From contig PLIQ01000092.1 in assembly GCA_003140115.1 (NCBI GenBank), positions 3,223 to 14,496 of the forward strand: a stretch of 11,274 nucleotides of DNA, read 5' to 3'. Each line of letters starts with the position of its first letter. The stretch's first letter is position 1. The notes beneath the pieces were generated by a model. That model was not told the DNA's origin. It saw only the letters and a list, made by a program, of their open reading frames with translations, and did not search any database. A program made the translations under genes and the position numbers. The stretch comes from Actinomycetota bacterium. GTDB lineage: Bacteria > Actinomycetota > Actinomycetes > Streptosporangiales > Streptosporangiaceae. Below, piece after piece: positions 23-4,855 of this stretch.

Positions 23-55
23 TCGGGAAGCGGCCGAGGCGATGGGCGGCGGCCT

Positions 56-84
56 TTTACTACGTGACCCGTCCTGTTTAAGGT
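56..84 (+). promoter_or_regulatory. Probable sigma-70-type promoter of the HerA-like ATPase gene
   Basis: A TTTACT hexamer (56-61) and a TAAGGT hexamer (79-84, fitting the actinobacterial TANNNT -10 pattern) are separated by exactly 17 bases, inside a short stretch clearly richer in A+T than its surroundings. Transcription would begin near 91 and give a leader of about 35 bases before the GTG at 126. The promoter lies downstream of the ATG at 42, so it argues against that longer start. This is pattern matching only; no start site has been measured. Confidence 0.5.
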
Positions 85-112
85 ATCTGTGTCGGGACGT
101 AACAAAACATGT

Positions 113-119
113 GGAAAGG
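113..119 (+). promoter_or_regulatory. Ribosome binding site that selects GTG 126
   Basis: GGAAAGG at 113-119 sits 6 bases before the GTG at 126. No comparable purine-rich site was found before the ATG at 42. Codons between 42 and 125 include two TTA, one CTA, ACA, AAA and two TGT, unlike the GC-ending codons of the gene body. Together with the promoter at 56-84 this favours the GTG. Confidence 0.6.
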
Positions 120-125
120 CGCCTC

Positions 126-3095
126 GTGACCTTAGGCTGGCCCGAGCTGACCGCGCTTGACGCGTACCGGATTACCGACATACCACGCCGCCTCGGCCCG
201 GGCGAGACCGGAGCACCAGTCGGCCAGCCGAACGACCCCGGCCGCACGCAGCGGCTGGCCGCGCTGATCGCGGCCTACCACGCGAGCGTAGCCGCCCAGG
301 GCAACGGCCCGGGCGCGCTGGCCCTCGGCTGGGTGCGGCACCGGGCCGGCGGTCCGGTGCAGTTCCTCGCGGCCGGCCCCGGCCTGGTCGGCAGCCAGGA
401 CGACCGCGACGTCCTGCTCACCCTGCCCGGCGGCGCCCGGGCCGAGCCACTGGACCGCGGCGCCCTGGCCACCCTCATGTCCGAGCTGCCGAGCTGGCGG
501 GCCATCGGCGGGATCAGCGACGGGCTCCGGCCCGAGGCCGGGCGCCGCACCGGGCAGCGACCTCCGCCGTCGCTGGAAGAGTGCCTGCTGGCGGTGTGGC
601 CGGGGGCGTTCGGCTGGCTGCTGGTGGCCGAGCCGGCCGGAGGTGCCGAGATCGGGGCGATCGCCGAGCAGGTAGCCCGGCGGGAGGAGCAGGTCGCCGG
701 TCAGGGCGAGGGGTTCCCGGACCGAGCGGTGCAGGCTCACCGGCTCCGCCTGCGGCACGCCGAACTGCGCCAGGGCCTGTCGACCGGGCTGTGGCGGCTC
801 CGGCTGGCCGCGGGGGGCGCCGACGCGGACGCCGCGGCCCGGGTGGCCGGGCTGGTCTGCGCCTCCGCCGATCTGGCCGAACTGCCCTACGCCGTGGCCC
901 CGGCCGACGGCGACGCCCGCGGCCTGCCCGAGCTTATGCAGGACACCAGCCCGGCCCCGGCCGGCGGGGACGCCGTGCTGGGCTATCCCTGCTACGCCAG
1001 CACCGAGCTGGTCGCGGCGCTGGCCCGGCCGCCCGAGCGTGAGATCCCCGGGGTGCGGCTGGCGTTGCGGCCCGACTTCGACGTGACCCAGGAGCCGGCC
1101 GCCGCCCAGCGCGAGGCGATCGAGGTGGGTGAGGTGCTGGACCGCAGCCGCCGGCCTGCCGGGCCGCTGGTGCTGCCGCTCGACTCGCTGAACCGGCACG
1201 TGTTCGTCTGCGGCGCCACCGGGACGGGCAAGTCGCAGACGGTGCGCGCTTTGCTCGAGGCCGCCACCCGCGCCGGGATTCCGTGGCTGGTGGTGGAGCC
1301 GGCCAAGGCCGAGTACCGGCTGATGGCGGCGCGCCTCGGCGCCGGGGCGGTCGAGGTGGTACGGATCCGGCCCGGGGAATCCGATGCGATCGCGGCCGGG
1401 CTCAACCCGCTCGAGCCGGCCCCGGACGCCGCGGGCCGCCGGTTCCCGCTGCAGACCCACGCGGACCTGGTCAAGGCGCTGTTCCTCGCGTCGTTCCGGT
1501 CCGAGGAGCCGTTCTCCCAGGTCCTCAGCGCGGCCTTGACCCGGGTCTACGAGGACGCCGGATGGGACATGACGCTGGGCGAGACGATCACGGCGGACCC
1601 GAACCCCGGCTATCCGGGCCTGACCGAACTGCAGCGAGCCGCGATCAGGATGGTCCGCGAGGTCGGCTACAGCCAGCAGATCACCGACAACGTGCTCGGC
1701 TTCATCAAGGTACGGCTGGCTAGCCTGCGCCGGGGCACCACCGGCCGGTTCCTGGAGGGCGGCCATCAGCTCGACTTCGGCCGGCTGCTGCGGACCAACG
1801 CCGTGCTCGAGATGCAGGACGTGGGCGACGACAGCGACAAGGCATTCCTCATGGGGACGGTGCTGGTCCGGCTGGCCGAGCACCTGCGGATGGAGCACAA
1901 GGCCCAGCCGGCCGGCCAGGTCCGGCTGCGCCACCTGACCGTCATCGAGGAAGCCGGCCGGCTGCTGCGCCGCCCGGAAGCCCCAGGCGGTGCGGCCGCC
2001 CGCGCGGTCGAGATGTTCGCCGGCCTGCTGGCCGAGATCCGCGCTTACGGCGAGGGGCTCATCATCGTCGAGCAGATCCCCGAGCACCTGGTCCCGGACG
2101 TGATCAAGAACACGGCGGTGAAGATCACCCACCGCCTCCCGGCGGCCGACGACCGGGACGCGGTGGGCGCCACGATGAACATGACCCGGGCGCAGAACCG
2201 CTTCCTGGTCACCCTGCGGCCGGGCGAGGCTGCGGTCTTCGCCGACGGCATGGACTACCCGCTGCTGGCCCAGATGCCCGACGGCACCGGCCGGGAGGCG
2301 GCGGCCGAGGTCGCCACCGCGACCCCCGCCGGGGTGGTCCAGTCGCGTAGCACGACGTGCGGCGGGGACTGCACCGCACGCCCGTGCACGCTGCGGGATA
2401 TGCGAGTCGCCCAGCGGGCCCTGGACGAGTACCCCGCCATCCGGCTGTGGGCCGAGCTGTCGGTCCTCGGGCACCTGACCGGCTGGCCCATGCCGGTGCC
2501 CCGGACCGCGCTGCTGTCCCTGCTGCAGATGATGCCGTCCCGGCTGCGCGACTGCGCCATCTCGCACGGCGTGGACGCGGCGGTGAGCGTCCGGGTGCCG
2601 GTCATCGCCGGGCGGGTCAGCCCGGTCGGGCTGGCCGCGCACGTCAGCACCGCGATCCGGGCCCGGGTATCGCTGGGCAGCTGGCTCTGCCAGCGGGAGG
2701 AGCCTCGCTGGCTCGCGCCCGCCTACCAGTGGACGCTGGTGCTGGACGTGCTCAAGACCGCGGACCGGCAGAATCCCGGGGCGGGCCCGCACCCGCGCAG
2801 CTCGGAATGGGAGCGGACGTACGGGCAAGCCATCGCCGGAGATACCTGCGCCCGGCAGGTCGGCACCGTCCAGCGCTGGTACGACGGAGCGCAACGCGAT
2901 GCCTGGGAAGTGCGGGCGGTGGCGTTCGGGGTGGAGGTCCCGTCCGCCGCGGAACGGGCCGTCGGGGCCGCCGCGGAGGACGACGACTTCGAGGAACGGC
3001 TCACCGGATACCTCGACCAGTTTGTCGACTGCCGTTGGCCTCGGCTTTACCTGGCCGGGGACGCGCTCGGTGACCCTCCGGATCAGCCTTTGTAG
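126..3095 (+). CDS. HerA/VirB4-like P-loop ATPase (DUF87-type helicase core)
   Basis: This is a 989-residue protein counted from GTG 126. A variable N-terminal part of about 340 residues precedes a RecA-like ATPase core. Walker A is GATGTGKS at residues 363-370, followed by the strand PWLVVEPAKAEYRLM. Walker B is LTVIEEA near residues 604-610, with Glu-Glu instead of the usual Asp-Glu, as in many HerA-like proteins. EIRAYGEGLIIVEQIPEHL and ITHRLPAADDRDAVG match the C-terminal part of HerA/VirB4 cores, where a sensor glutamine and arginine finger are expected. After the core are three closely spaced cysteines (residues 745, 749, 754) and a further C-terminal domain of about 230 residues that I do not recognise. 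The family forms hexameric DNA translocases or helicases working with nucleases or in secretion and defence complexes; the substrate here is unknown. No signal peptide or membrane segment was seen, so it is probably cytoplasmic. Codon 3 is TTA, the only in-frame TTA I found in the window. The ATG at 42 would give 1017 residues but is disfavoured. No partner gene is visible inside the window. Confidence 0.85.
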   Translation: MTLGWPELTALDAYRITDIPRRLGPGETGAPVGQPNDPGRTQRLAALIAAYHASVAAQGNGPGALALGWVRHRAGGPVQFLAAGPGLVGSQDDRDVLLTLPGGARAEPLDRGALATLMSELPSWRAIGGISDGLRPEAGRRTGQRPPPSLEECLLAVWPGAFGWLLVAEPAGGAEIGAIAEQVARREEQVAGQGEGFPDRAVQAHRLRLRHAELRQGLSTGLWRLRLAAGGADADAAARVAGLVCASADLAELPYAVAPADGDARGLPELMQDTSPAPAGGDAVLGYPCYASTELVAALARPPEREIPGVRLALRPDFDVTQEPAAAQREAIEVGEVLDRSRRPAGPLVLPLDSLNRHVFVCGATGTGKSQTVRALLEAATRAGIPWLVVEPAKAEYRLMAARLGAGAVEVVRIRPGESDAIAAGLNPLEPAPDAAGRRFPLQTHADLVKALFLASFRSEEPFSQVLSAALTRVYEDAGWDMTLGETITADPNPGYPGLTELQRAAIRMVREVGYSQQITDNVLGFIKVRLASLRRGTTGRFLEGGHQLDFGRLLRTNAVLEMQDVGDDSDKAFLMGTVLVRLAEHLRMEHKAQPAGQVRLRHLTVIEEAGRLLRRPEAPGGAAARAVEMFAGLLAEIRAYGEGLIIVEQIPEHLVPDVIKNTAVKITHRLPAADDRDAVGATMNMTRAQNRFLVTLRPGEAAVFADGMDYPLLAQMPDGTGREAAAEVATATPAGVVQSRSTTCGGDCTARPCTLRDMRVAQRALDEYPAIRLWAELSVLGHLTGWPMPVPRTALLSLLQMMPSRLRDCAISHGVDAAVSVRVPVIAGRVSPVGLAAHVSTAIRARVSLGSWLCQREEPRWLAPAYQWTLVLDVLKTADRQNPGAGPHPRSSEWERTYGQAIAGDTCARQVGTVQRWYDGAQRDAWEVRAVAFGVEVPSAAERAVGAAAEDDDFEERLTGYLDQFVDCRWPRLYLAGDALGDPPDQPL

Positions 3096-3211
3096 CCGCG
3101 CGTTGTCCACAATTGAATCCACAGACATGTGCATTCAGTTGCCAGGGCCCCGTCCATACTGGGACGTTACGTTCTGAGTTATCCACAGCGCGTGCTTGTG
3201 GAGAACGTCCG
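3096..3211. promoter_or_regulatory. DnaA-box cluster in a convergent intergenic gap
   Basis: The gap between two converging genes contains TTGTCCACA (3103-3111, + strand, exact actinobacterial DnaA box), TTATCCACA (3179-3187, + strand, exact classical box) and TTCTCCACA (3197-3205, - strand, one mismatch). A degenerate GAATCCACA lies at 3115-3123. Both flanking genes end here, so no promoter function is needed. DnaA binding at such extra-origin clusters is known to titrate DnaA or alter its nucleotide state. The last two boxes also form an imperfect inverted repeat (TCCACA, 9-base loop, TGTGGA), which could be a terminator stem instead. A 5-bp hairpin (3151-3155 with 3162-3166) could also end transcription. 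DnaA binding is inferred. Confidence 0.6.
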
Positions 3212-4855
3212 TCAGGTCGCTGGCAGCAGCTCGGGAAGCCTGCCAGGGGACGCCGTGGACACCGATCGCCAGCCCCAGCGCCCGGACAAGCAGAGCCAGA
3301 CCAACGCCACGGCGGCCAGCAGGCGAACGCCGGGCGTCAGCCACGCGCCGTCGAACTGGCCGAGGTTAGCCAGCCAATGAGGCTGGAACGGGCTCTGCAC
3401 GGCCTGGACGTAAACGGTCGCGCCGGCCAGCAGGCGGATCAGCACCACCCAGTCCAGCCGCGAGGCCGAGTACAGCGCGAGCAAGCTGATGGCCATCACG
3501 TCGTACCAGGGCCGCTGGAAGGCGGTGAGGAAGAGCCAGGCCAGGCTCAGGGCTAGGGCCGGGGTCACGGCGGGCAGGCGCGGCACCGGGTCGGGGAAGC
3601 GCAGCACGGCCAGCACCGCTACGGCGGCGAACAGCAGGTACGCGATCAGTTCCAGGTGCGGCGGGACGCTGGTCACGCTGAACTGGGTGTAGCCGAGCAC
3701 CGGCCGCCAGAAAAGCTGGTACATGGTGTCCCAGGTGATCCCGGGGCTGCGGGTGAGGAGGATCTTGATCGCGGGGGTGCCCGCCGCCAGGTAGGCCGGG
3801 ACGACGACCAGCAGGAAGCCGGCCGCGGCGGCGGCCAGCGGCTTGACCGACCGGCGGCAAGCCCAGGCCACGGCCAGGCCGAACAGGGCGTACTCGGCCT
3901 TGATGCCGGTGGCCACGCCGATCGCCAGCCCGGCCAGGACCGCGTCACGCAGCCCGATCTGCCCACCGCCCCGCTCGGCGCGCGGTTCGCTGCCTGGCTC
4001 GCTGGCCGTTTCGCTGCCTGGGCGGCTGCTCTGGCTGGGGCGGATGCGCAGCGCGACCACGCCCAGCAGGCCGAACAGCGCGGCCAGCCCGTCGATATGA
4101 CCGCTGGCCACGATCTCCCACAGCAGCAGCGGGTTCACCGACCAGAGCAGGTGCGCGCGCAGGCGCTGCGCGGGATCGGCTCGGAGCAGGCGGTCCAGGA
4201 CCAAGATCACCGCGCCGAAGGCCAGCGCCTCCTCCAGCTTCAGCCAGAACGTGATCCGGGCCAGCGAAGATCCGCCCAGCTCGGCCGCGGCCCACTCGGC
4301 CCCGGTGGCCACCGGGCCGTACACCGACACCGTGGTCGTCCAGGTGGACGGTATCTCACTGAACGGGATCTGCCGGCCGATCGGGTCACCGCTGCGCTGC
4401 AACTCCAGCGGGGTCATGACGTAGGGGCTGCGCCCGATGACCGCCATCCGTCCATTGGCGGCGTACGAGATGGCGTCGGTCGAACCGGCCGCGGGCAGCA
4501 CGGTCACCACCGCGACAGCCAGGAACGCGGCCGCGATGACCGCGCGTACCGGCGGCCGCGCGCCGCGGGCCACGGCGAGCAGCCCGGCGATCACCCCGGC
4601 GCAGCCCAGCACGATCGCGGCCCACAGCGACACGGTCACGAACGTGGCGGTCAGGTGCAGCGCGTGCCACCAGGGCGGGCTGCCGGCCGGGTGGCGCAGG
4701 GCCGGCACGGAGACGTTCGGCCCGGCGGCCGAGATCGCGATGATGATAAGCGTCGAGATGGCGATGGCCGCCGCGGCCAGCCAGCCGAGGAGGCGGGTCA
4801 GTTCGGGCGAGCCGGAACGACTGATCCTTTCGTCGCCGTCGTGCTCGCCCACCAC
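3212..4855 (-). CDS. Polytopic GT-C-fold glycosyltransferase (polyprenol-phosphate mannosyltransferase-like)
   Basis: This 547-residue integral membrane protein has about 11-12 hydrophobic segments (roughly 23-44, 68-95, 103-122, 204-222, 238-268, 302-330, 337-358, 400-418, 428-445, 450-465, 470-487, 508-524). The loop after the third segment carries GSTDAISYAANGRMAVIGRSP (124-144), which resembles the first external loop of actinobacterial alpha-mannosyltransferases of the MptA/MptB and GT87 type; Asp127 is the likely catalytic or metal-binding acid. WSVNPLLLWEIVASGHIDG (238-256) is another typical GT-C segment. Such enzymes take sugar from a polyprenyl-phosphate donor on the outer membrane face to build lipoglycans or wall polysaccharides; the exact sugar and acceptor cannot be read from sequence. 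The GTG at 4855 was chosen because it directly precedes the N-terminal region and has a partial Shine-Dalgarno site (AGGCGGG) 5 bases upstream. Residues 277-295 form a short Gly-Ser-Glu-Pro repeat loop. The gene converges on the ATPase gene and follows the DUF5324-like gene across a hairpin. Confidence 0.75.
   Translation of the reverse strand: MVGEHDGDERISRSGSPELTRLLGWLAAAAIAISTLIIIAISAAGPNVSVPALRHPAGSPPWWHALHLTATFVTVSLWAAIVLGCAGVIAGLLAVARGARPPVRAVIAAAFLAVAVVTVLPAAGSTDAISYAANGRMAVIGRSPYVMTPLELQRSGDPIGRQIPFSEIPSTWTTTVSVYGPVATGAEWAAAELGGSSLARITFWLKLEEALAFGAVILVLDRLLRADPAQRLRAHLLWSVNPLLLWEIVASGHIDGLAALFGLLGVVALRIRPSQSSRPGSETASEPGSEPRAERGGGQIGLRDAVLAGLAIGVATGIKAEYALFGLAVAWACRRSVKPLAAAAAGFLLVVVPAYLAAGTPAIKILLTRSPGITWDTMYQLFWRPVLGYTQFSVTSVPPHLELIAYLLFAAVAVLAVLRFPDPVPRLPAVTPALALSLAWLFLTAFQRPWYDVMAISLLALYSASRLDWVVLIRLLAGATVYVQAVQSPFQPHWLANLGQFDGAWLTPGVRLLAAVALVWLCLSGRWGWRSVSTASPGRLPELLPAT
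3986..4021 (-). repeat. Short in-frame direct repeat in a glycosyltransferase loop
   Basis: The 12-mer TTCGCTGCCTGG occurs at 3986-3997 and again at 4010-4021, a 24-base (8-codon) period. It encodes a repeated Ser-Glu-Pro-Gly-Ser-Glu pattern in the hydrophilic loop around residues 280-291. It looks like slippage-generated linker expansion and keeps the frame. Confidence 0.6.

What the first reader, a model, noticed from the sequence alone, without database searches (positions are those of the whole stretch)
3103..3205. DnaA-box cluster in a gap between convergent genes, away from dnaA/dnaN
Two exact DnaA boxes (TTGTCCACA at 3103, TTATCCACA at 3179), one 8/9 box on the opposite strand (3197-3205) and a degenerate box (3115) fall within about 100 bases of noncoding DNA. 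Two perfect A+T-containing 9-mers so close together are unlikely by chance in a high-GC genome. Both neighbouring genes end here, so the cluster is not a promoter. DnaA-binding sites outside oriC are known to titrate DnaA or change its ATP/ADP state in other bacteria. The pbpA-pknA-pknB neighbourhood is usually close to oriC, so this site would be duplicated early in the cell cycle. The role is inferred.
Basis: partly seen in the sequence, partly recalled or inferred. Interest (0 to 1): 0.72.

Follow-up and report, generated by a model that had tools for sequence, protein, structure and literature searches.

The report
Conserved DnaA-binding cluster outside the origin
A short stretch between two genes of an actinobacterium carries a fixed arrangement of likely binding sites for DnaA, the protein that starts chromosome copying; close relatives keep the sites while the DNA between them has changed, so it probably holds DnaA to help time replication.

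Summary
The 116-bp gap between a HerA-like ATPase gene and a convergent gene holds five DnaA-box-like sites at 0, +12, +25, +76 and +94 (3103, 3115, 3128, 3179, 3197). The same layout (within 1 bp) occurs at the equivalent place in three related genomes; there 37 of 45 box columns are invariant against 15 of 64 others. Four more distant relatives keep two or more boxes in the same gap. Loci with rearranged gene order, and loci of the flanking gene without its usual neighbours, lack clusters. The first pair is a 'double DnaA box' (3-bp spacer), preferred by E. coli DnaA in ChIP-seq. The first three sites repeat a layout found upstream of dnaA in 10 of 18 relatives examined (0 in 100 shuffled sets). 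The probable oriC of the closest relatives has weaker boxes. In 12 of 12 measurable relatives the neighbouring gene crgA lies 42-140 kb from dnaA. Best reading: a high-affinity, probably oriC-proximal DnaA-binding cluster that limits free DnaA, of a kind known in Streptomyces coelicolor, Bacillus subtilis and E. coli. Binding and function are inferred. A DARS-like role is possible but the geometry is not exact.

The parts
42..3095 (+). HerA-like (DUF87/HerA_C) ATPase gene, ends at the gap
   Evidence: ORF; Pfam PF01935/PF05872; 1455 homologues, 120 listed
3096..3211 (.). convergent intergenic gap holding the cluster, 116 bp, GC 0.56 against 0.714 for the window
3103..3111 (+). R1, TTGTCCACA, exact actinomycete DnaA box
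   Evidence: 9 of 9 columns invariant in 4 loci
3115..3123 (+). R2, GAATCCACA, second box of a double DnaA box (3-bp spacer, +12)
   Evidence: 7 of 9 columns invariant in 4 loci
3128..3136 (-). R3, inverted weak box-like site (TGTGCATTC on + strand, +25); near-palindromic in three deeper relatives, so its orientation is uncertain there
   Evidence: 5 of 9 columns (TGTGC) invariant in 4 loci
3139..3147 (+). possible degenerate direct site TTGCCAGGG at +36 (inferred); the same offset is an exact TTGTCCACA in L008
   Evidence: and reading
3179..3187 (+). R4, TTATCCACA, exact box (+76)
   Evidence: 8 of 9 columns invariant
3197..3205 (-). R5, TTCTCCACA, inverted box facing R4 across 9 bp (+94)
   Evidence: 8 of 9 columns invariant
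3212..4855 (-). convergent gene, called GT here; hydrophobic, glycosyltransferase-like only by my reading of the sequence, no Pfam match
   Evidence: relatives

Best explanation
It is a conserved high-affinity DnaA-binding cluster lying outside oriC, non-coding in the window. DnaA binds the double box R1-R2 cooperatively, R3 extends that complex, and R4-R5 form a second, inverted pair about 50 bp away. The cluster is probably oriC-proximal, so it doubles early in replication and takes up DnaA, lowering free DnaA at the weaker boxes of oriC and at the dnaA upstream sites, and so limits re-initiation. Shown: the sites, fixed spacing, conservation in place in three genomes and looser conservation in four more, the layout shared with the dnaA upstream region, and oriC proximity of the neighbourhood in kin. 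Inferred: DnaA binding, titration, effect on initiation.
For: Same five-site layout in L002 and L011, and within 1 bp in L001: 37 of 45 box columns invariant against 15 of 64 others, Fisher p = 1.5e-9 with columns treated as independent. Of 7 GT loci whose neighbours show synteny, 6 carry two or more boxes (up to 1 mismatch) at the 3' end of GT; of 23 without such neighbours, none has an exact box in the 3' flank and 3 have a single 1-mismatch box (these 30 are all the loci that handed out, of 223 genomes with a match). R1-R2 is a direct pair 3 bp apart; E. coli DnaA prefers 2-3 bp pairs in vivo (PMC11317965 Results). Exact TTVTCCACA boxes, element against dnaA-dnaN gap: L002 3 against 0, L011 3 against 1, L001 2 against 1 (DnaN confirmed). 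crgA is 42-140 kb from dnaA in 12 of 12 measurable kin. Precedent: DnaA-box clusters near oriC can repress untimely initiation in S. coelicolor and B. subtilis (PMC4585315 and PMC5742627 passages).
Against: No binding data. The strict five-site form is narrow: 3 of 297 family genomes (stricter filters that lose weak matches), the three that built the model, plus the window. Of 13 HerA-like loci, 8 have no cluster. In L001, R4 and R5 lie inside the 3' end of the GT reading frame, so 'non-coding' does not hold throughout. Distance to oriC is unmeasured in every genome that carries the cluster. Few boxes could hold only a handful of DnaA molecules unless binding is strongly cooperative. In B. [quoted passage not shown]
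Confidence: 0.66

Rival explanations
1. It is a catalytic DnaA site, like E. coli DARS (ADP release, reactivation) or datA (ATP hydrolysis), where box geometry rather than number does the work.
For: Spacing is fixed while between-box DNA diverges. R1-R2-R3 is a direct pair then an opposing site at +25; E. coli DARS1 and DARS2 read 0, +12, then an opposing box at +26. DARS cores have three uniquely arranged boxes with I and II opposed (PMC8682772 passages).
Against: Spacing differs by 1 bp; R3 is weak; in three deeper relatives that site is near-palindromic and reads better as a direct box. A closely similar layout (third site at +23 to +25) sits upstream of dnaA, so it is not specific to reactivation. 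Fis, which activates DARS2, and the DARS2 core are described as confined to gamma-proteobacteria related to E. coli (PMC4245941 passage).
Confidence: 0.15
2. It is a second or relocated replication origin, or an outlying part of oriC.
For: It is among the densest exact-box clusters in G001, G002 and G005, and the dnaA-dnaN gap there is short with weak boxes: 248 bp in L025, 267 bp in L026, 428 bp in L032.
Against: Only 116 bp at GC 0.56 in the window, and a meeting point of converging genes. The dnaA-dnaN gap still holds 11-12-bp-phased runs of boxes in L024, L025 and L032, and shorter ones in L026 and L027. Unwinding was not modelled.
Confidence: 0.05
3. The inverted sites form an RNA hairpin or bidirectional terminator between the convergent genes, and likeness to DnaA boxes is incidental.
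For: All four members fold better than shuffles as RNA on the + strand: z -3.07 (window), -2.03 (L002), -2.15 (L011), -2.15 (L001).
Against: The predicted folds differ: R1 pairs with R5 in L002 and L011, R2 with R5 in L001, neither in the window (by eye). No terminator-like site at 2900-3400; no Rfam match at gathering cut-offs; invariant columns coincide with boxes. Inverted boxes pair as RNA by construction.
Confidence: 0.05
4. DnaA bound here acts on transcription, as a roadblock between the converging genes or on a distant promoter.
For: The layout resembles the dnaA upstream region.
Against: No sigma-70-like promoter in the gap; both genes end there.
Confidence: 0.09

Closest known systems
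Streptomyces coelicolor DnaA-box clusters (Smulczyk-Krawczyszyn et al. 2006; paper not held, seen only as cited in PMC4585315 and PMC5742627; further details recalled)
   Same: Actinomycete, cluster of DnaA boxes outside but close to oriC; stronger binding than oriC (recalled)
   Different: Location and layout could not be compared; here the site lies between converging HerA-like and GT genes
Bacillus subtilis DnaA-box clusters (DBCs; Okumura et al. 2012, not held, seen as described in PMC5295017)
   Same: Clusters outside oriC whose joint removal gives early initiation
   Different: Six clusters there; here one strict element, with one or two other close pairs of exact boxes per genome
E. coli DARS1/DARS2 core
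   Same: Direct double box then an opposing box downstream
   Different: +25 instead of +26, weak third site, orientation not kept in deeper relatives; IHF or Fis sites were not sought
E. coli datA
   Same: Contains a double box (PMC11317965 Table 1)
   Different: Minimal datA is 262 bp with an IHF site (PMC5742627 passage)
DnaA boxes upstream of dnaA in the same bacterial family
   Same: Direct pair at 12 bp followed by TGYGC within 9 nt
   Different: Here there is no promoter or dnaA gene; boxes are closer to consensus than in the dnaA upstream regions of G001, G002 and G005; an opposed pair R4-R5 follows

Membership tests
Extra-oriC DnaA-box cluster (datA / DBC / S. coelicolor cluster kind) | Several consensus DnaA boxes close together outside oriC, more than chance | tested here: met
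Extra-oriC DnaA-box cluster (datA / DBC / S. coelicolor cluster kind) | Boxes kept in relatives while surrounding DNA changes | tested here: met
   strict form in 3 genomes, looser in 4 more; absent in others
Extra-oriC DnaA-box cluster (datA / DBC / S. coelicolor cluster kind) | Near oriC | tested here: inconclusive
   crgA-dnaA 42-140 kb in 12 of 12 measurable kin; the 7 cluster-bearing genomes were not measurable
Extra-oriC DnaA-box cluster (datA / DBC / S. coelicolor cluster kind) | Binds DnaA and restrains initiation | not testable with these tools
   no binding or cell data
DARS (DnaA-reactivating sequence) | Core of three boxes at 0, +12 and opposing +26 as in both E. coli cores | tested here: not met
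   +25, weak third site, orientation not kept in deeper relatives
DARS (DnaA-reactivating sequence) | Promotes ADP release from DnaA | not testable with these tools
   biochemistry
oriC | Beside dnaA | tested here: not met
   box arrays found in dnaA-dnaN gaps of relatives
oriC | A+T-rich unwinding element | tested here: inconclusive
   gap GC 0.56 against 0.714; unwinding not modelled
dnaA upstream (operator) sites | 12-bp double box plus TGYGC within 9 nt | tested here: met
   in the element by reading; in 10 of 18 dnaA loci
dnaA upstream (operator) sites | Lies upstream of dnaA | tested here: not met
Intrinsic terminator | G+C-rich hairpin followed by a T run | tested here: not met
   0 found at 2900-3400

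The most novel reading that the evidence does not exclude
The element is a promoterless copy of the layout of the dnaA upstream sites, with improved boxes: a decoy operator whose gene dosage, rising just after initiation, feeds back on both DnaA availability and dnaA autoregulation. Its opposed sites may also reset DnaA's nucleotide state, which would make it perhaps the first DARS-like site outside proteobacteria.
Probability: 0.15. Interest if true: 0.75.

Novelty: new member of a known kind. Interest (0 to 1): 0.52.

Why it matters
How actinobacteria keep replication to once per cycle is less well understood than in E. coli, whose main DnaA-switch proteins are not known from them (recalled). 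A compact site with fixed geometry, stronger boxes than the probable oriC and a layout shared with the dnaA upstream region makes the titration idea directly testable with a fragment of about 110 bp.

Tried and rejected
Chance: rejected. Promoter: not supported. Structured RNA or terminator: rejected as the main reading. oriC: considered because dnaA-dnaN gaps in the lineage are short, but they carry phased boxes. DARS membership: attractive because of the 0/+12/+25 layout, reduced when deeper relatives showed a near-palindrome read better as a direct box and when dnaA upstream regions showed a similar layout.

Led nowhere: plasmid search (no match); paper search by cluster name (0 papers); DARS in actinobacteria (3,087 papers hold at least three of the five terms, 12 listed, none with 'DnaA-reactivating sequence'); PMC5835720 find (0 places). 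Of the 11 genomes over the limit, 8 are weak (22-30 bits): L040, L041 and L043 have DnaA within about 3 kb, L042 only a DnaN match; L045 lies between dnaB and a MATE gene (tested on L047, the wider stretch); L046 looks alike by eye; L039 and L044 were not assigned.

Rows left out of the dnaA count: L028 (start estimate failed), L095 and L097 (no DnaA), L096 and L098 (chosen by the pattern itself). In L026 the trio is visible but missed the mismatch limit and counts as lacking it. The same scan on the dnaA sense strand gave 6 of 18 pairs and 0 trios.

Full report
What is there. The window is an 11.3-kb actinobacterial contig; some named homologues of its HerA-like protein are Streptosporangiaceae. 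Genes: HerA-like ATPase (42-3095, +), a gene without Pfam match (3212-4855, -; called GT here, glycosyltransferase-like only by my reading), a small protein without Pfam match, a cyclophilin-type isomerase, a rhomboid protein, CrgA, two protein kinases (one with PASTA domains) and a transpeptidase end. The 116-bp gap 3096-3211 lies between two genes that both end there. It holds R1 TTGTCCACA (3103, +), R2 GAATCCACA (3115, +), R3 TGTGCATTC (3128, read as an inverted weak box), R4 TTATCCACA (3179, +) and R5 TTCTCCACA (3197, -).

More than chance. In the window there are 5 matches to TTRTCCACA with up to one mismatch, three of them in this gap; 1.28 are expected and 1 of 200 shuffles had at least 5. 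The window's genome is not held, so relatives were counted: exact TTRTCCACA occurs 44 times in G001 (9.5 Mb), 18 in G002 (6.7 Mb) and 19 in G005 (4.3 Mb), with reversed-pattern controls of 17, 14 and 9. So single boxes are hardly in excess in G002. At those rates 0.020, 0.005 and 0.008 pairs within 100 bp are expected per genome. The element is one of two such places in G001 and one of three in G002 and in G005.

Conservation in place. A genome scan with an alignment of 14 HerA-like proteins gave 13 loci. L002 and L011 have R1, R2, R4 and R5 at exactly the window's spacing; L001 has them at 0, +12, +77, +95. L001 has about 1.2 kb between the HerA-like frame and R1, and its R4-R5 lie inside the 3' end of the GT frame; the boxes are kept there all the same. 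Across these four, 37 of 45 box columns are invariant and 15 of 64 others; pairwise identity is 0.90 against 0.49. A sequence-only model of the four scores them at 87-96 bits (by construction) and finds full copies in only 3 of 297 family genomes, the three used to build it. L005 and L008 have boxes in the gap in a looser form. The other 8 of 13 loci have no cluster: L003, L004, L006, and L007, L009, L010, L012, L013, where no GT was matched beside the HerA-like gene (L013 has one TTCTCCACA just past that gene).

Looser relatives and controls. GT searched in the same 297 genomes matched in 223; the 30 loci handed out were all examined. Seven have HerA-like, small-protein or isomerase neighbours. 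Six of these carry two or more boxes (up to one mismatch) at the 3' end of GT: L055 (same place as L002), L057, L058 (L008), L059 (L005, 778 bp away), L075 (L001) and L078. The seventh, L056 (L004), has none; there the two genes are not convergent. Of the other 23, none has an exact box in its 3' flank (496-2331 bp) and 3 have one 1-mismatch box each. In G006 the HerA-like gene (L003) and GT (L074) lie on different loci and neither has a cluster; L006 has no GT match. In sum, eight loci carry boxes: seven with the convergent pair (window, L001, L002, L005, L008, L057, L078) and L011, whose contig ends 316 bp past the HerA-like gene, so GT is not proven there.

Layout. R1-R2 is a direct pair with a 3-bp spacer. 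In E. coli, 15 of 16 DnaA-bound ChIP-seq regions have a close match to a double box with 2-3 bp spacing; mutating either box or inserting a base pair greatly reduced binding (PMC11317965, Results section). S. [quoted passage not shown] R1-R2 with a third site recurs in L057, L008 and L005, where that site is TGCGCAC, near-palindromic. At +36 the window has TTGCC and L008 an exact TTGTCCACA, which suggests an older 12-bp-phased array (inference).

Shared layout with the dnaA upstream region. The four best model hits outside the members lie upstream of dnaA in L024, L025, L026 and L032 (E 0.005-0.015); an Actinomadura locus, L022, scores equally at 0.015. Of 18 dnaA loci scanned (up to 500 bp upstream of the homology-based start), 10 have a 12-bp double box followed by TGYGC within 9 nt on the strand opposite dnaA, and 17 have an 11- or 12-bp phased pair there; 100 shuffled sets gave 0.04 pairs on average (at most 1) and no trio. 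A strict pattern of this layout matched 3 of 394 genomes of the class: twice upstream of dnaA (L096, L098) and once at this element in G001. G001 was the centre of that search, so its match is not independent.

Relation to oriC. The gap between dnaA and dnaN (dnaN confirmed in L025, L026 and L032; by position in L024 and L027) carries 11-12-bp-phased, mostly weak boxes: runs of four or five in L024, L025 and L032, shorter in L026 and L027. It is the probable origin (inferred). It has 0, 1 and 1 exact TTVTCCACA boxes in G002, G005 and G001, against 3, 3 and 2 in the element. crgA, in the window's neighbourhood, lies 42-140 kb from dnaA in 12 of the 19 genomes searched for it, all that have both on one contig (genomes of 6.0-12.9 Mb). 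The other 7, all of which carry the cluster, have them on different contigs or gave no dnaA over the cut-off (G141).

Mechanism. DnaA-box clusters near oriC are said to repress untimely initiation in B. subtilis and S. coelicolor (passages of PMC4585315 and PMC5742627), though another review gives B. subtilis clusters less weight (PMC5295017 passages). E. coli boxes are enriched near oriC, which favours titration (PMC12371093 abstract and one section). A conserved cluster with stronger boxes than the probable oriC fits this. Catalytic action as at DARS is the main rival: E. coli DARS1 and DARS2 read 0, +12 and an opposing box at +26, here +25. The mismatch, the weak third site and its altered form in deeper relatives argue against membership. 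Binding, titration and any effect on initiation are inferred.

Novelty. The kind is known. This member, its five-site layout and its likeness to the dnaA upstream sites were not named in the titles or abstract starts listed by eight literature searches, which cover only open-licence papers. The two founding papers on such clusters were not held.

Noticed in passing
L016:4168-4194 and L018:6406-6430: In two element-bearing genomes (G005, G002) an everted pair of exact TTATCCACA boxes lies at the 5' end of a DUF4192 gene, before the Pfam domain; the true start codon is uncertain. It may be a DnaA-responsive promoter of a gene of unknown function.
   Followed up: partly
L014:6997-7035, L015:6589-6627, L017:5904-5942: Each of three genomes has one direct pair of TTATCCACA exactly 30 bp apart, apparently beside different genes (in L017 next to a RarA/MgsA-type AAA gene). 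Unexplained.
   Followed up: partly
L047:9962-10101 (same place as L045), L021:5476-5540; L048 and L049 look alike by eye: A DnaA-box cluster lies between the replicative helicase gene dnaB and a divergent MATE transporter gene in L047 and L021 (Pfam); possibly the counterpart of a Streptomyces cluster (recalled lead, untested).
   Followed up: partly
L019:5248-5811: In the Actinomadura pelletieri genome ten DnaA-box-like sites (up to 1 mismatch) lie within 564 bp, about 14 kb from dnaA; flanking genes not identified.
   Followed up: no
L025:1229-1476, L026:1210-1476: The dnaA-dnaN gap in G005 and G002 is only 248 and 267 bp with mostly weak boxes, against about 640 bp and many more boxes in A. 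pelletieri (L031), so oriC looks compact in this lineage.
   Followed up: partly
L047:7316-9940: The DnaB gene carries a homing-endonuclease-like insertion (LAGLIDADG_3 and Hom_end matches), as expected of an intein.
   Followed up: no
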